From Lactiplantibacillus paraplantarum (lineage in GTDB: Bacteria > Bacillota > Bacilli > Lactobacillales > Lactobacillaceae), in contig NZ_CP032744.1 of assembly GCF_003641145.1 (NCBI RefSeq), positions 1,860,001 to 1,924,000 on the forward strand: a DNA stretch of 64,000 nt. Direction: 5' to 3'. The position numbers and the translations under genes are program-made. The first letter of the stretch is position 1, and each line of letters starts with the position of its first letter. Shown here piece after piece: positions 41,624 to 47,750 of the stretch. Under the pieces are notes generated by a model. The model was not told the origin of the DNA. It was given only the letters and a program-made list of their open reading frames with translations, and did not search any database.

Positions 41624-43222
41624 TCATTCCGCTTCATCTGCCGCAATTGCTGCCTTTAATTTGCGCTGATACCACCCAAACACACGCTGAACATTCGCAA
41701 CAGCACGCTCAAATGAAAATGTCCCTAACAATAACAAACATGGTAAGTATTGGATCAAATAGCGACTCCGACCACCTTCAAATAGCAGTAAAAAGACAAA
41801 GCCACCAATCATTGACAGTCGTAGCAGTTGGATGACCCGCCACTTAGCCCCAGACCCCAACACAATAACCGTCAGTAGTGCGATCCACCACAGTTGAGCT
41901 GTAAAACGAAAATCGGCAATATGCCGGCCATATAAATAAATAAAGTTTTTCAACCAATTACTAAAACCCTGATTCGTCGGTTTTTGATTTTCACGAAAGA
42001 AATTACCTTCTTTCAACCAGCCAAAGGTCCCGTCAGCTGTATTATTACGCTGCTTTTTTATTAAGAATTCAAAGTAACCCAGTGGTCCCAACTTTTTTAG
42101 ACGTCGTTTCAGCATCTTAATCGAATAATCAGTCTTTTGTTTTTTAGTTGGCAAGACCGCCATTTGAATTGCTTGCTTTTCACTATAGCCACCGGTCCCA
42201 TAAACACCCATCGCCATGAAATGAATTGCAGGAATCGACCGTGACCGATCTAATTTGATATACGTTTGCCCTTGAATTGCCTGATTCGTGTAGTGATAAG
42301 TGAAGCCCGCACTTTCCACCATTAAGATCAACATCGCAGCGCTGACAAAGATTGCGGGCGCATGCGGGGCACGCTTGTGTTTTAATCCTTCTAAGCATTC
42401 AATAATGACAATCGCGATGACTGGAATAATCGATGAAGGTTTCATAAAATAAGTCAACGTAACACTTATTCCAAAGCCAACCGCTGACGCCACTCGCAGT
42501 AGCGGTGGCAAGCTCGTCTGACGCATCACAAAGTAACATAGCATGTAAAAAGAAACCAAGGGTAAGCCCCATGCATCCGTATACGGCATAATAATACTTG
42601 GGAAGACAGCCAACCAGCCCGCATGTAAATACAATGCGAATCCCAGCGCGTGTCGGCGCACCACCGCCACACTTAACAAGTTAAAGGCCGCCGATAAATC
42701 AACGAAAAATAACGTCACATAATCAAAAAACTGCCACGATGTTTGTCCCGTTGACTCTGATAGCCAATGCATAAAAAGCATGATGGGCATATTATTTTGA
42801 TTAAGACTATAGTATGCAGTTACGCCAACTTCCTGCACGTGCTTGGCACTAGTCGCTGCATAATGAAGCATCCCCGCATCAAAGCCACTCACCGGGTGCA
42901 CAAACGTGACAAAGATGATTTGGCCGATAACGACCAGCCCGAGCAAACTGCCCGCTGTCCAAAGTTGGTGCGTGACCAGCACACGATACACGCCCCGTCG
43001 AAAGCGTGGGTAGGCATAACTCATAATTAAAACGGCTGTAATGCCAATGACTAAACTAGTTGTTAGCATGGTCGTGCTCGTCCCAAACGTCGCATTATCA
43101 CCTAAAATAATATTCGGCGAAGTCACCGCAAAGATGAACATTAAGCCAAATAACAGCCACCAAATGACTGTAATTGTTGATTGACTAAACCGGTAAAAGT
43201 AACGTCTTATCATTGATCTCAC
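41624..43222 (-). CDS. Polytopic membrane protein of the exosortase G cluster
   Basis: 532 residues with about a dozen hydrophobic segments and a large extracytoplasmic loop near residues 310-430. The layout resembles GT-C/PMT-type membrane glycosyltransferases (early acidic-aromatic loop HPVSGFDAGMLHYAATSAK). It matches the description of the conserved integral membrane family known to co-occur with the Gram-positive exosortase (TIGR03766 as I recall it). It may transfer or flip a glycan in the XrtG pathway; this is inference. It starts 85 bases after the GT2 gene stop on the same strand. Activity unproven. Confidence 0.72.
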   Translation of the reverse strand: MRSMIRRYFYRFSQSTITVIWWLLFGLMFIFAVTSPNIILGDNATFGTSTTMLTTSLVIGITAVLIMSYAYPRFRRGVYRVLVTHQLWTAGSLLGLVVIGQIIFVTFVHPVSGFDAGMLHYAATSAKHVQEVGVTAYYSLNQNNMPIMLFMHWLSESTGQTSWQFFDYVTLFFVDLSAAFNLLSVAVVRRHALGFALYLHAGWLAVFPSIIMPYTDAWGLPLVSFYMLCYFVMRQTSLPPLLRVASAVGFGISVTLTYFMKPSSIIPVIAIVIIECLEGLKHKRAPHAPAIFVSAAMLILMVESAGFTYHYTNQAIQGQTYIKLDRSRSIPAIHFMAMGVYGTGGYSEKQAIQMAVLPTKKQKTDYSIKMLKRRLKKLGPLGYFEFLIKKQRNNTADGTFGWLKEGNFFRENQKPTNQGFSNWLKNFIYLYGRHIADFRFTAQLWWIALLTVIVLGSGAKWRVIQLLRLSMIGGFVFLLLFEGGRSRYLIQYLPCLLLLGTFSFERAVANVQRVFGWYQRKLKAAIAADEAE

Positions 43223-43307
43223 TTCGTTGAAAGTGTCAACTCGTCATTGAGTTATCGAATCAGCAACACCCACGGATGTTTCATAACGTGCCACCACTTA
43301 CTTCAAC

Positions 43308-44663
43308 TTATTTTCCTTTCCGGCGCTGTCGATAATGATCACGAATGGTCTGACCATCATCACATAAGACCGCCCATAATCGTTGCCATTCTTCCGTGAA
43401 CCCGCGCATCTTCCAAGTTGCTTGCGTTGTCATCGCATTGATGACCCCCACTAATCGGATCCATGACGTCAAAAACATGTAGAGCGGCAATGTCAAAGTC
43501 AACCACCACAAGTGTGAATAAAAGCGCTTTTCTTCTGGATATGGCCGTAGCAGAATGCCCACACTGATAAAATTGATTACACCAACCATGGCATACAGCG
43601 CATAGATCAAGAGATAGGATAGCCCGACCACCACGGTTGAATAACCAAAAGCAATTAGAACGATCGTTGCAAAAGTCCAAATCATTCGTGGAAATGTAAA
43701 CGTATGGTCGATCATGATCCGGCGCACCAAGAAATCTTTGAAAAAGCCTCTGATACTAGCTGTTTGTGCCATGTAATGTTGCGCCACTTCTAGTTCACCA
43801 CGCTGCCACCGCTGCCGTTGCGTATACAACTCTGAAAAACCCGAAATTGGTGCTACGTAAAAAATCGCATTCGCACAAATCACAACCTTTTTGCCAAGTC
43901 GCGTCCGAATCTGGAAAGTCATGTCCGTATCTTCACCAATGGTGTCAGTGTCGTACAAAAAGGTTTCCATAAGCACTTCCCGCCGAAACGCTGAGAAGGC
44001 CCCTGACATAGTAAATAATTGGTCACAAAACGATTCGATCGTTCGGCCAGACAAAAAGGCTTGGGCATATTCGTAGTATTCATTTTTGGCTAACAAACGG
44101 TGCCACCAACCATGAACTTGTTTAACCAAATCCCGTTGTGGTAACACTGCTCCGGTCATAGCTGCAATGCGCTCATCACTCTCGAATCGTAATACCATAT
44201 TTTTGACCGCGTTTGATTCCAAAAGACCATCACTATCGATATTAATGACATAACTACCAATACTCTCATAAATTGCCGCATTAAGTGCTCGCGCTTTACC
44301 CTTATCAGTATTAACATACCGCAAAAACAAATCTGGAAAGGCATTTTGAGCACGAGCGTACGCCCCAAAGCTATCATCAGTACTCTGGTTATTGGCAAGG
44401 ATAATCTGCATTGATTTTTTATCATACGTCTGATTATCGATTGAACGGATACAGTCAAACAACGTATCCTCAGAGTTATAAACCGGTACAATAATGGTTA
44501 CCCACGGCCATTTAGCAGGTGCTTCAAGCTTAGGCATGTGCCGGTGTAATCGCATTAACTTAATCGTTGATACGATTGCTGGAATAATTTCAACAACAAT
44601 CGGTACCAGCGCCCACGTAATCCAGAATCCCATTCTGGTCAGTGCTAAGTTGATCCAATACAT
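43308..44663 (-). CDS. Exosortase G-associated processive glycosyltransferase (GT2)
   Basis: About 451 residues. N-terminal membrane segment(s) (ALVPIVVEIIPAIV), a GT-A catalytic domain with VPVYNSEDTLFDCI, the DxD-type NIDSDG, EDTDMTFQIR and the Q/RxxRW motif RQRWQRGELE that marks processive synthases (cellulose/poly-GlcNAc type), then C-terminal membrane helices. ATG at 44663 overlaps the xrtG stop (TGATG), indicating translational coupling; GTG at 44666 is the alternative, with GGAGGG upstream of both. It corresponds to the GT family reported beside XrtG (TIGR03111 as recalled). Sugar and acceptor unknown. Confidence 0.83.
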   Translation of the reverse strand: MYWINLALTRMGFWITWALVPIVVEIIPAIVSTIKLMRLHRHMPKLEAPAKWPWVTIIVPVYNSEDTLFDCIRSIDNQTYDKKSMQIILANNQSTDDSFGAYARAQNAFPDLFLRYVNTDKGKARALNAAIYESIGSYVINIDSDGLLESNAVKNMVLRFESDERIAAMTGAVLPQRDLVKQVHGWWHRLLAKNEYYEYAQAFLSGRTIESFCDQLFTMSGAFSAFRREVLMETFLYDTDTIGEDTDMTFQIRTRLGKKVVICANAIFYVAPISGFSELYTQRQRWQRGELEVAQHYMAQTASIRGFFKDFLVRRIMIDHTFTFPRMIWTFATIVLIAFGYSTVVVGLSYLLIYALYAMVGVINFISVGILLRPYPEEKRFYSHLWWLTLTLPLYMFLTSWIRLVGVINAMTTQATWKMRGFTEEWQRLWAVLCDDGQTIRDHYRQRRKGK

Positions 44664-45262
44664 CACAGAATTCGATCCCTCCAATCAATAAACTGCTGAT
44701 AAATTCCTCGGGCCAACTGCGAATATGTGAAAACATTGTAATATAAAATAATAACAAGGACATAAAATAATAAGCGCCCAATGACAGAATGCGCCAAGAA
44801 GAAGGTTTGACCACCGCCAAAGTGAACAATCACAATCACGGTAACTAGCCGTAACACATTGATCAGGTAAATAAATACTAAGCCAAAAACACCATAGAAT
44901 ACTTTCTCACGACGATTATAAGCCGGATAGAATGCCACCAACGAAACAAACGCACAGGTTTCAATAATCCCTGAACATTCGTAGTCAATTGACATGACTA
45001 CCGGATTACCACTATTAGTGATATACACTAGTCCCATTTTGAACATAATAGTACACCAATTGGTTATATCGCTAAATAGTGCGACCCCGTGAATGACGGC
45101 GTGAGTAAAAAACCACACCCAATACGGACGACTAATTGCTGTTAATATAAAAAAAAGCCCGGCGCTTCCCACAATAAAGTAGAAAGCTGATAGCCGAGCC
45201 CGTTTGAGCACTGACAGTCCGTATAACCATATTACAATCCCTAGTAGGATTTTTACATTCAT
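44663..45262 (-). CDS. xrtG: Gram-positive exosortase XrtG
   Basis: Putative membrane transpeptidase that cleaves and attaches proteins with a C-terminal sorting signal. 199 residues, mostly hydrophobic. The exosortase/archaeosortase triad is visible: Cys96 in DYECSGIIE, Arg138 in NVLRLV and His158 in FLAHSVIG, each at the edge of a membrane helix. Short for an exosortase, as in the Gram-positive subfamily (TIGR03110 as recalled). The likely substrate gene is immediately upstream but broken by an IS; the GT2 gene overlaps the stop. No promoter of its own is obvious, so the IS may alter its expression. Confidence 0.88.
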   Translation of the reverse strand: MNVKILLGIVIWLYGLSVLKRARLSAFYFIVGSAGLFFILTAISRPYWVWFFTHAVIHGVALFSDITNWCTIMFKMGLVYITNSGNPVVMSIDYECSGIIETCAFVSLVAFYPAYNRREKVFYGVFGLVFIYLINVLRLVTVIVIVHFGGGQTFFLAHSVIGRLLFYVLVIILYYNVFTYSQLARGIYQQFIDWRDRIL

Positions 45263-45823
45263 CGTCCACCAGTCCTATTAATTAGCTGACCGACCGTTCC
45301 CAATAAGAACCAAGTCGGCGGTTATAAATGATTGTCAGTCAAAACTAGTTCCATAAATCCCAATAATTACTTTTTAACTTTTGGTAAATCAGTTGGTTCT
45401 AATTGCCGCCGCTTGCGGAATTTGAAATAACCCCACGCCACGATAACAACCCCAACACCTGAAATCAAGTACGGCCCCGTTGAACCACCAGCGACCGTCA
45501 CTTTCTCATTACCAATATTTGGATTATACATCGTAATGGTTTGACCCGTCATGGTTGAAATCTTAAATTTACTCAAATCAACTCTAAATTCCGCAATCGA
45601 ATGTGAACCAGCTTGTGAAACATACCCATTACCAACGGTTCCATACTGATGACCTTCGTTCCACTCGCCACCAGTAAAGGACACGGCTTTGACAGCCCCG
45701 TCACTTTGTGAACTTGGCATATCGCCAGACCAGACATAATATTTTTGACCACTGATATCAAAATTATAGTCTCCATAACCTGGAACTTGACCATACTTCA
45801 TCTTGACATAGACATAAACGTAC

Positions 45824-45826
45824 TTA
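45824..45826. repeat. Target-site duplication, left copy
   Basis: TTA directly flanking the IS; the matching copy is at 46707-46709. Confidence 0.8.
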
Positions 45827-45846
45827 GAACGTGTTTAGAATCTTTT
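45827..45846 (+). repeat. IS terminal inverted repeat, left
   Basis: GAACGTGTTTAGAATCTTTT; pairs with the complement of 46687-46706 at 15 of 20 positions by eye. Confidence 0.8.
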
Positions 45847-46338
45847 CAAGAGTATTCGCAGGAAGGCTAAGCTAATCATCATCTTACTGGTGTTCAGCTT
45901 TCGCTCACAATTACGCCAGAGGCGCCGATATTTTCCTAGCCAGCTAAAACTGCGTTCGATAACCCAGCGTTGCGGGGTCACTTGACCGTGCCTAAGGTCA
46001 CTCTGTTTAGCAATAATGACTTCAGCGTTAATCATTGCCTGAACTGATTGAGCAAAGTTTTTACCAGTATAACCACCATCGGCCATTACTCGTTGAACCA
46101 GGTCAAACTGTGATTTGTTTAACGCCAGTAGCGCATTGGCGCCATCACGCTCAGAAACATTGGCGGTTGTCACATGGACTGCCATCGGCAGCCCATTGAT
46201 ATCTACAGCAAGATGGCGCTTAATCCCACTCACCTTTTTACCACCATCGTAGCCGCTACTTTCAGCAGGATCGGTATTCTTGACACTTTGAGCATCTAGA
46301 ATGACGAACGATGTATAAACTGAACGCTTCTGAGCCAA
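45835..46338 (-). CDS. IS transposase, C-terminal frame (orfB)
   Basis: DDE catalytic half of the transposase. Asp15 (VILDAQSVK), Asp87 (VMADGGYTG) and Glu128 (WVIERSFSWLGKYRRL, the Y-(2)-R-(3)-E-(6)-K-type signature of IS5 elements) are all present. The frame opens with a TTG at 46338 with no clear RBS, so it is probably made only as an orfA-orfB fusion of about 266 residues by -1 frameshifting. Confidence 0.88.
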   Translation of the reverse strand: MAQKRSVYTSFVILDAQSVKNTDPAESSGYDGGKKVSGIKRHLAVDINGLPMAVHVTTANVSERDGANALLALNKSQFDLVQRVMADGGYTGKNFAQSVQAMINAEVIIAKQSDLRHGQVTPQRWVIERSFSWLGKYRRLWRNCERKLNTSKMMISLAFLRILLKRF

Positions 46339-46634
46339 CCGATGTTGGCTGACAATTTTTTTAAAACCTTATCCAGAGGAGTGATACCAGCAGGAGATGG
46401 CGTTTTAGTCCAAAGTAACCAGTAATAATAGACGGTTTCCCATTTAGGAAAATCGCTGGGTAAATCGCGCCAAACGCACCCATTTTTCAAGGTATAAAGC
46501 AGGGCACAAAAGATATCATATAAATCAACCTTTCTTGGCTTAGTCCGCTTACGTATGCCTTCTAGATCTGTCCGGATTAGTTCAAATTGTTCACGAGAGA
46601 TGTCGCTACTATAATGGTGTGCAAAGCTTTTCAT
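46296..46634 (-). CDS. IS transposase, N-terminal frame (orfA)
   Basis: 112 residues with the DUF4096-like N-terminal domain of IS5 transposases (RKVDLYDIFCALLYTLKNGCVWRDLP). ATG at 46634. A run of seven A residues (minus strand, 46362-46356) in the phase TTA AAA AAA TTG overlaps orfB by 43 bases; slipping back one base yields K-K-I-V-S-Q-H-R-L-A-Q-K, joining orfB exactly. Unshifted translation stops 19 codons later. Confidence 0.88.
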   Translation of the reverse strand: MKSFAHHYSSDISREQFELIRTDLEGIRKRTKPRKVDLYDIFCALLYTLKNGCVWRDLPSDFPKWETVYYYWLLWTKTPSPAGITPLDKVLKKLSANIGWLRSVQFIHRSSF

Positions 46635-46686
46635 GGATTAAAAACTCCTGTTTTTGATCTAATTTAACTAAAATCAAATCGAATGT

Positions 46687-46706
46687 CAAAGTATCCAAAC
46701 ACGTTC
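46687..46706 (-). repeat. IS terminal inverted repeat, right
   Basis: The complement reads GAACGTGTTTGGATACTTTG. It overlaps the 3' end of the reading frame that runs in from the split surface-protein gene. Confidence 0.8.
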
Positions 46707-46709
46707 TTA
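46707..46709. repeat. Target-site duplication, right copy
   Basis: TTA flanking the right IS end; deleting the IS and one copy restores the surface-protein frame. Confidence 0.8.
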
Positions 46710-47750
46710 CCATCGCTGACCATGGCAGTATAGCCGTCATAACCCTCAGTCAAAGTGACGTTCTTCCAGTCATTGAAATTACCATCAATCTTAATATTTA
46801 GATTATCATTATCGTTACTAGCATTATTATCTGTCGTTAATGACGCCTTAGAAGCCGTGTCATCCTTATCTGTGATTACCCCTGCCGAACTGCTCGTCGA
46901 ATTTGTGGCACTGCTTGAATCAGTACTACTGCTTGAATTTGTTGCACTACTTGAATTGGCGGCGCTACTTGAGCTAGCCGAACTGGTCGCAGTTGTAGTA
47001 ATCGTACCGGCAGTGGTCGTTGCGCTATCACTTCCAATGTTCGGATTAGCCATTGAGATTTGCTTCCCACTTGCGCTTGCCGTCAATCCTAGTTTGGTCA
47101 GATCAACTTTGAATTCAGCATAGTTATGCGAACCATCATTCGTCACATAACCAGTTCCGACCGTCCCGTACTGGGTGCCTTCGTTCCATTTACCACCAGT
47201 TAGCGTAAATGATTTGACACTTCCCGAACTAACGCTGCTCGGAATGTTATTCGACCAGACATAATAAGTTTTACCATCAATAGTAAAATTATAGTCCCCA
47301 TAGCCTGGAACTTGGCCGTTCTTCATCTTGACGTAAACATTGACGTACTGACCATCACCCGCTAGCGCCGTATAACCGTTATAGCCTTCCGTTAACGTCG
47401 CACTTTTCCAATCATTCATTTTACCATCAATTGTGACGTTGGTGCTGGCATCAGCAGTCACTGAATTCGTCATTACCATGGCACCGGTCATACTAAAGGC
47501 AAGCATGCCTAAAATCATCAACTTATTAATTTTTTTCACGATGGACACACCTCCAAAACTTAACATCGTTTTTATGGGTCATTAAGACCAACGGACCTTT
47601 TTTACCCTGTAAATCAATAGTATACTCCTCGCATCAATTAATCAATCAATATTTCCATTTAAATGAACTCAATGACCATTAACAGCACTAATGATTATCG
47701 CCACGGACCAGTCTGACTAATTTTAGCCGTTTTTAGTCCATGGTTTGTAA

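What the first reader, a model, noticed from the sequence alone, without database searches (positions are those of the whole stretch)
41624..47539. A compact Gram-positive exosortase (XrtG) system with a putative substrate
Seen: a 199-residue membrane protein with the Cys96-Arg138-His158 triad of exosortases; a GT2 synthase whose ATG overlaps its stop; a polytopic membrane protein downstream; and upstream a secreted protein ending in a small membrane segment plus basic patch. Known: these families were described bioinformatically (TIGR03110, TIGR03111, TIGR03766, Firmicu-CTERM TIGR04145, as recalled), without a clear biochemical role in lactobacilli. Inference: XrtG cleaves the Firmicu-CTERM-like tail and joins the protein to a glycan or lipid made by the GT. 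The 6-pyruvoyl-tetrahydropterin-synthase-like partner reported elsewhere is absent from this window.
Basis: partly seen in the sequence, partly recalled or inferred. Interest (0 to 1): 0.85.

Follow-up and report, generated by a model that had tools for sequence, protein, structure and literature searches.

The report
Exosortase module with interrupted substrate gene
This stretch of a lactic acid bacterium's genome carries a known gene set (XrtG) thought to cut a secreted protein and fix it to the cell surface, but in this strain the gene for that protein is split by a jumping DNA element, leaving the machinery without its only recognisable target.

Summary
The XrtG identification is right, and the system is already catalogued: XrtG, GT2, GT-C and Firmicu-CTERM all pass NCBI cut-offs, and the intact operon is in print for L. 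plantarum (PMC12854382). Two searches found no other substrate in the genome. The 'absent' PTPS-like partner exists about 1.85 Mb away. In 281 Lactobacillaceae genomes XrtG and the GT2 occur in exactly the same 54; the substrate family is in all 54, the PTPS-like gene in 51, full-score GT-C in 50. A component is broken in 13 of 54 carriers, against 0 of 54 for typA. New and testable: GGDEF or degenerate EAL (c-di-GMP) genes lie within 500 bp of the module in 14 of 80 loci and next to it on a conjugative Lactococcus plasmid. This suggests a c-di-GMP-controlled surface-glycan machine to which XrtG couples its substrate. Cleavage and coupling are inferred, not shown.

The parts
46664..47539 (-). 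Substrate gene, N-terminal fragment: GTG start at 47539, signal peptide, first beta domain, Ser/Thr-rich linker, start of second domain; frame runs into the IS element (stop at 46664)
   Evidence: (TIGR04145, 120.2 bits, cut-off 50); same 291-aa protein in the database as P0122
47550..47554 (-). GGAGG, likely ribosome-binding site of the substrate gene
   Evidence: sequence printed
45827..46706 (-). IS5-family insertion element, 880 bp, splitting the substrate gene; TTA on both sides (45824-45826, 46707-46709)
   Evidence: IS5 transposase model; on 238 plasmid records
46296..46634 (-). Transposase ORF A (DUF4096 part)
45835..46338 (-). Transposase ORF B (DDE part)
   Evidence: (NF033580, 131.7 bits, cut-off 110)
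45367..45801 (-). Substrate gene, C-terminal fragment (ATG-started ORF; rest of second domain and sorting signal), no signal peptide
   Evidence: TIGR04145, 123.4 bits
45472..45489 (-). GGSTGP motif, proposed XrtG recognition site
   Evidence: invariant in 32 of 32 aligned relatives; only match of its DNA pattern in the genome
45412..45471 (-). Predicted C-terminal membrane helix (residues 400-419 of the intact homologue P0121), followed by basic residues
   Evidence: model of P0121, low confidence there; position computed from the alignment
44663..45262 (-). xrtG, 199 aa; Cys96, Arg138, His158
43308..44663 (-). GT2 glycan-synthase-like gene (TIGR03111), ATG overlapping the xrtG stop
   Evidence: (729.8 bits, cut-off 363.95)
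41624..43222 (-). GT-C-like polytopic glycosyltransferase (TIGR03766)

Best explanation
This is an exosortase G module whose only recognisable substrate gene has been interrupted. SHOWN by sequence: the four known families are present; the substrate gene is split by an IS5 element; xrtG, GT2 and GT-C remain open; the fifth gene (PTPS-like, TIGR03112) lies unlinked in the same genome; the five families are co-inherited. INFERRED: in intact strains the substrate (two similar beta domains joined by a Ser/Thr-rich linker) is exported by its signal peptide and held by its C-terminal helix; XrtG cuts at or near GGSTGP with its Cys-Arg-His triad and transfers the new C-terminus to an acceptor made by the module's own glycan pathway (PgaC-like GT2, GT-C, PTPS-like protein), giving a surface glycoconjugate. 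In this strain that product should be missing: a fragment without anchor would be secreted free, and the fragment with the sorting signal has no signal peptide.
For: All four families over cut-off. In 281 genomes XrtG and GT2 share exactly 54; substrate family in all 54 of these (4 further genomes without XrtG); PTPS-like in 51 (2 without XrtG); GT-C over cut-off in 50 (3 without XrtG). The five families are the most recurrent neighbours in 80 loci. Triad invariant in 34 of 34; GGSTGP invariant in 32 of 32 and directly before the predicted helix. GT2 synthase motifs conserved. Interruption; intact homologue P0121, 95% identical to the N-terminal fragment. No other substrate found. XrtG dN/dS 0.064 against L032. 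XrtG system over-expressed in self-aggregating L. plantarum (PMC12854382, passage).
Against: No biochemical evidence for cleavage or coupling by any XrtG was found. The motif varies in the wider set: exact in 54 of the 77 loci with a substrate hit. No amine-bearing acceptor or deacetylase recurs beside the module. Three of 54 carriers lack the PTPS-like gene and two (G020, G266) have no GT-C match, so those two parts may be dispensable. No solved structure resembles XrtG clearly. G245 has a substrate but no XrtG.
Confidence: 0.5

Rival explanations
1. The module is primarily a c-di-GMP-controlled exopolysaccharide synthase (PgaC/BcsA-like GT2; GT-C and PTPS-like protein tailor the glycan). XrtG and its substrate only add a surface protein to it, so a strain without substrate still makes the glycan.
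For: GGDEF/EAL genes within 500 bp of the module in 14 of 80 loci and beside it on pBV60; GT2 nearest to PgaC and NodC models; a degenerate EAL protein next to a PgaC-like GT2 binds c-di-GMP in L. acidophilus (PMC6123363, passages).
Against: XrtG and GT2 are found in exactly the same 54 genomes, so the synthase is not seen without XrtG at the threshold used. No GGDEF/EAL gene in the window; 60 of 80 loci show none in the stretch held.
Confidence: 0.3
2. XrtG is a plain C-terminal protease that frees the substrate, while the GT-C glycosylates the substrate's Ser/Thr-rich linker like a protein O-mannosyltransferase.
For: Ser/Thr-rich linker in the substrate; GT-C with invariant early Asp115 (71 of 71); lp_2141, called a dolichyl-P-mannose mannosyltransferase in PMC5313477 (passage), may be this gene (my guess from gene numbering).
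Against: Some substrates are single-domain proteins of 213-243 aa, too short for two domains and a long linker, and still sit beside XrtG or a GT-C. The GT2 is always present, which linker glycosylation alone does not explain.
Confidence: 0.2
3. The locus is simply decaying: the insertion is one step in loss of a dispensable surface trait and nothing of it works in this strain.
For: Substrate split; module patchy (54 of 281 genomes) and broken in 13 of 54 carriers; an IS256 element in xrtG of L052; in G057 all five genes are hit.
Against: xrtG, GT2 and GT-C are fully open in the window; IS copies are 99% identical, so the event may be recent; the truncated allele P0122 has only 5 member sequences.
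Confidence: 0.3

Closest known systems
XrtG system of L. plantarum (LP_RS09075-LP_RS09090, PMC12854382; NCBIfam TIGR03110, TIGR03111, TIGR03766, TIGR04145)
   Same: Same four families, same order (passage)
   Different: Here the substrate gene is split by an IS5 element; the fifth gene TIGR03112 is not mentioned in the passage read and lies unlinked in this genome
Archaeosortase A (Haloferax volcanii) and its PGF-CTERM substrates
   Same: Tripartite C-terminal signal (motif, helix, basic residues); distant family score (TIGR04178, 64.1 bits over 23); passages of PMC7157517
   Different: Motif GGSTGP instead of PGF; partner genes are glycosyltransferases instead of PssA/PssD lipid enzymes; one substrate instead of many
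Poly-beta-1,6-GlcNAc synthase PgaC/IcaA (TIGR03937)
   Same: GT2 motifs and nearest characterised model, 119.5 bits
   Different: Far below the 422.3-bit cut-off; no deacetylase partner recurs in 80 loci
gts operon of Lactobacillus acidophilus (GtsA, GtsB, PdeB; PMC6123363)
   Same: PgaC-like GT2 with a degenerate EAL protein carrying ELLLR, as beside several XrtG modules
   Different: No exosortase or CTERM protein is named there (0 occurrences of 'exosortase'); identity of GtsB with TIGR03111 not tested
6-pyruvoyl-tetrahydropterin synthase / QueD
   Same: Weak family similarity (28.1 bits to QueD; 2g64 E 0.00049); three histidines conserved
   Different: Below cut-off; the Asp-His of 2g64 reads Ser-Gly

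Membership tests
Exosortase G (TIGR03110) | Score over the curated cut-off | tested here: met
   266.8 bits against 102.75
Exosortase G (TIGR03110) | Cys-Arg-His triad | tested here: met
   C96, R138, H158; invariant in 34 of 34; 80/81, 80/80, 79/80 in a wider set
Exosortase G (TIGR03110) | Polytopic membrane protein | tested here: met
   Long helices in the model, mean pLDDT 86.2; membrane insertion itself not tested
Exosortase G (TIGR03110) | Cleavage and transfer of a CTERM substrate | not testable with these tools
   Needs an enzyme assay
XrtG system | GT2 TIGR03111 and GT-C TIGR03766 beside xrtG | tested here: met
   729.8 (cut-off 363.95) and 711.7 (cut-off 500) bits
XrtG system | Intact Firmicu-CTERM substrate (TIGR04145) | tested here: not met
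   Both pieces pass the model (120.2 and 123.4 bits), but the gene is split by an IS element
XrtG system | TIGR03112 partner in the genome | tested here: met
   124 bits against 69.35, C1:54421-54753, unlinked
QueD / PTPS enzyme (for the TIGR03112 protein) | Score over cut-off and catalytic Asp-His | tested here: not met
   28.1 against 89.25 bits; Asp-His of 2g64 replaced; catalytic role of the pair is recalled
PgaC/IcaA (TIGR03937) | Score over cut-off | tested here: not met
   119.5 against 422.3 bits
IS5-family insertion sequence | Transposase, inverted ends, target repeat | tested here: met
   ORF B 131.7 against 110 bits; ORF A alone 72.7, below cut-off; ends; TTA repeats
Carbohydrate-binding beta-sandwich (substrate domains) | Fold match to a solved carbohydrate-binding domain | tested here: inconclusive

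The most novel reading that the evidence does not exclude
XrtG modules are c-di-GMP-gated surface-glycoconjugate machines of Gram-positive bacteria: a diguanylate cyclase and a degenerate EAL receptor control the PgaC-like GT2, and XrtG covalently couples its dedicated substrate to the resulting glycan or glycolipid. The module moves between genera, also on a conjugative plasmid, and is repeatedly switched off by insertions or frameshifts in any of its five genes; the window's strain is a natural substrate knockout. My searches (listings, and passages of the papers cited) showed no paper linking XrtG to c-di-GMP; the library lacks most subscription journals.
Probability: 0.3. Interest if true: 0.7.

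Novelty: already known. Interest (0 to 1): 0.42.

Why it matters
XrtG is named in databases, but I found no biochemical test of it. The window offers a natural substrate-minus strain with the other linked genes open, a precise motif (GGSTGP) to alter, and a defined five-gene set to delete, so a long-open question about Gram-positive exosortases becomes directly testable in a benign bacterium. The c-di-GMP neighbourhood of relatives gives a first regulatory hypothesis, and the system is over-expressed in self-aggregating probiotic strains (PMC12854382, passage).

Tried and rejected
Rejected: (1) one intact substrate gene in the window: IS ends, TTA repeats and the continuous homologue P0121 show an interruption. 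(2) PTPS-like partner lost from the genome: one search finds it. (3) An archaeal XrtG (L096, titled Candidatus Methanovirga): the 10.9-kb contig also carries GGDEF and EAL genes, so I read it as a bacterial contig in a wrong bin; not proven. (4) The GT2 as a PgaC member: fails the cut-off.

Rows dropped and limits: 34 XrtG rows were aligned: the window's own and 33 of the 120 listed homologues (177 found). 32 of 48 substrate homologues were aligned; left out were the truncated P0122, the odd or partial P0149, P0155, P0162 and others. Of 164 confirmed XrtG stretches the tool kept 80. The 281 genomes are a draw from a larger family. The break count of 13 of 54 leaves out G076 (one stop in a hit to the other domain) and G020 and G266 (GT-C absent); some truncated matches may be contig ends; without G057 and G195 it is 11 of 54. 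Controls: typA 0 of 54; of 23 genomes with a full-score pycA, 1 is split. Both are conserved housekeeping genes and no accessory-gene control was run. The c-di-GMP spacing control uses random positions in the same loci; with L068, L084, L087 and L101 dropped as near-duplicates it is 12 of 21 against 2.4 expected. Genome-wide GGDEF/EAL density was not measured. A first, less sensitive search gave 25 ORFs in 17 loci; the profile search gave 29 in 20, and I use the latter.
Full report
Observation. XrtG is at 44663-45262(-), 199 aa, with Cys96, Arg138 and His158, and scores 266.8 bits to TIGR03110 (cut-off 102.75). The downstream GT2 starts on an ATG that overlaps the XrtG stop by one base and scores 729.8 bits to TIGR03111. 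The polytopic protein scores 711.7 bits to TIGR03766. The upstream protein belongs to Firmicu-CTERM, TIGR04145 (scores).

What was missed. The upstream protein is not encoded by one continuous gene. Between its two parts lies an 880-bp IS5-family element (45827-46706) with two overlapping transposase ORFs, inverted ends (20 nt, 85% complementary) and the triplet TTA on both sides. Two more full copies at 99% identity lie in the same genome, and the element is common on plasmids (238 records, 219 of them Lactiplantibacillus). The database holds a continuous 433-aa homologue, P0121, 95% identical to the N-terminal fragment, and the same truncated 291-aa protein, P0122, with 5 member sequences. 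The insertion therefore looks like an allele of a few strains. The N-terminal piece keeps signal peptide, first domain and linker; the C-terminal piece keeps the sorting signal but has no signal peptide. A search of the own genome with TIGR04145 at E up to 10 finds three matches, all pieces of this gene. A DNA pattern for GGSTGP occurs once in the genome, here; its reversed control occurs twice. By these tests XrtG has no other recognisable substrate in this strain.

The fifth gene. The 6-pyruvoyl-tetrahydropterin-synthase-like partner is absent from the window but present in the genome, 124 bits to TIGR03112, 1.85 Mb from xrtG on the same contig. It keeps three histidines that I read as zinc ligands (63/63, 64/64, 64/64), fails the QueD cut-off (28.1 against 89.25), and has Ser-Gly where 2g64 has Asp-His. 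It is probably not a pterin enzyme of the usual kind; the roles of these residues are recalled.

Distribution. In 281 Lactobacillaceae genomes XrtG occurs in 54, from 15 of 40 genera, and the GT2 in exactly the same 54. Firmicu-CTERM occurs in 58 at E<=0.001: all 54, G245 with a strong match, and G147, G160, G246 with weak ones. The PTPS-like gene is in 53, of which 51 are shared; GT-C over cut-off in 53, of which 50 are shared. Tabulation and Fisher tests. The PTPS-like gene lies within 15 kb of xrtG in 45 of the 51 and apart in 6, the window's genome included. In 80 named loci (80 kept of 164) my own profiles find GT2 in 79, substrate in 77, GT-C in 72 and PTPS-like in 64; some contigs end within the module. 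Clustering all neighbours gives the five families as the most recurrent (59 to 79 loci each); next come an ABC ATPase (25 loci, name read from its sequence) and the c-di-GMP group (20 loci). This is strong evidence for one five-component pathway.

Sorting signal. GGSTGP directly precedes the predicted membrane helix and is invariant in 32 of 32 aligned relatives (helix 400-419 in the model of P0121, low confidence there). In the wider set it is exact in 54 of 77 loci with a substrate hit; variants include GASTGP, GGNTGA and GTSTGW, and a few loci lack it because the gene is broken. The recognition element is better seen as a relaxed G-x-[ST]-[ST]-like motif.

Active site and synthases. The triad is invariant in 34 of 34 and nearly so in the larger set (80/81, 80/80, 79/80). 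XrtG is under purifying selection against L032 (dN/dS 0.064); for GT2 and GT-C synonymous sites are saturated. The GT2 keeps DSD, GED and QRQRW, which by established knowledge of cellulose-synthase-like GT2 enzymes points to a membrane glycan synthase; its best characterised models, PgaC (119.5 bits) and NodC (59.7 bits), are far below cut-off. The GT-C has Asp115 in 71 of 71 and a conserved EGGRSRY stretch.

Repeated breakage and mobility. Reading, 13 of 54 carriers have at least one module gene with a stop, a split or a truncated match; typA is unbroken in 54 of 54 and pycA is split in 1 of 23 genomes with a full-score match (tabulated). One case is an IS256 element inside xrtG (L052). The XrtG tree cuts across genera (Levilactobacillus needs 9 changes, Lactiplantibacillus 5); the window's sequence groups with L032 and L. 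brevis ATCC 14869; the tree tool warns that such changes are no proof of transfer. A complete five-gene module sits on the conjugative Lactococcus lactis plasmid pBV60. Together these suggest a mobile, conditionally useful surface trait.

c-di-GMP link. On pBV60 the module is preceded by a diguanylate cyclase and an EAL protein. A profile search finds 29 GGDEF or EAL ORFs in 20 of 80 loci; 17 of the 29, in 14 loci, lie within 500 bp of a module gene, against 3.4 expected from random placement in the same loci (0 of 100,000 simulations as high); without near-duplicate loci it is 12 of 21 against 2.4. Pfam confirmed the domain in all ten ORFs given (8 from the 80 loci, 2 from pBV60). In Enterococcus (L083, L084) EAL and GGDEF genes lie between GT-C and substrate; in Limosilactobacillus (L099, L101) and Ligilactobacillus saerimneri (L100) an EAL gene follows the PTPS-like gene within 18 bp. 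All 13 EAL proteins read by eye lack the aspartate of KxD (recalled as catalytic) and 10 of 13 keep ExLxR; 16 of 17 GGDEF proteins printed keep GG[DE]E[FL]. PMC6123363 (passages) reports that PdeB of L. acidophilus, a degenerate EAL protein with ELLLR in an operon with a PgaC-like GT2, binds c-di-GMP, and cites a degenerate EAL protein, Lp_2714, in L. plantarum. The window has no such gene, and the rest of its genome was not searched for one. This is an analogy and a testable regulatory model, not proof.

Literature. 'XrtG' appears in 2 papers of the library, one of them on astronomy, and 'Firmicu-CTERM' in 1. That one, PMC12854382, reports the complete XrtG system over-expressed in self-aggregating L. 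plantarum (passages; outline). A GT2 of the XrtG system is listed for Levilactobacillus brevis TMW 1.2112 in PMC8951740 (passage). lp_2141, a putative dolichyl-P-mannose mannosyltransferase, was lowered by olive oil (PMC5313477, passage); its identity with the GT-C here is my guess from gene numbering. PMC13297897 (passages) links raised c-di-GMP to aggregation in L. plantarum without naming XrtG in the passages seen. Archaeosortase anchoring is taken from passages of PMC7157517, where Haft et al. 2012, which by its title describes archaeosortases and exosortases, was seen only as a citation.

Verdict. A known system, correctly recognised, with an overlooked insertion that removes its substrate in this strain, a fifth gene relocated rather than lost, and a new c-di-GMP clue from relatives.

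Noticed in passing
L111:4413-10691 (NZ_CP110851.1, Lactococcus lactis plasmid pBV60): A complete XrtG module preceded by a diguanylate cyclase and an EAL protein on a plasmid typed as conjugative.
   Followed up: partly
L052:8751-9956: An IS256-family transposase gene sits between two pieces of xrtG in Levilactobacillus brevis strain CD0817: a second, independent insertion in the module.
   Followed up: partly
L022:5503-6144, L023:11193-11834, L024:4232-4873: Further Firmicu-CTERM proteins lie away from any xrtG, a few kb from a TIGR03766 gene; G128 and G195 have xrtG elsewhere, G245 has none detected.
   Followed up: partly
L096:3832-10800: A five-gene module on a contig titled Candidatus Methanovirga (an archaeon), 27% GC, beside GGDEF and EAL genes: probably a bacterial contig in the wrong bin.
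   Followed up: partly
L107 and L028 (G057, Secundilactobacillus malefermentans): All five module genes give split matches or matches with stops in one genome.
   Followed up: no
46870-47010: The Ser/Thr-rich linker differs in length between the window and P0121, and one metagenome protein (P0162) has a different reading frame before it: possible slippage.
   Followed up: no
L017:5616-6791: An IS256-family transposase lies about 2.6 kb from the relocated PTPS-like gene in the window's genome.
   Followed up: no
window 43308-44684: The GT2 also has an upstream in-frame TTG start at 44684, inside xrtG.
   Followed up: no
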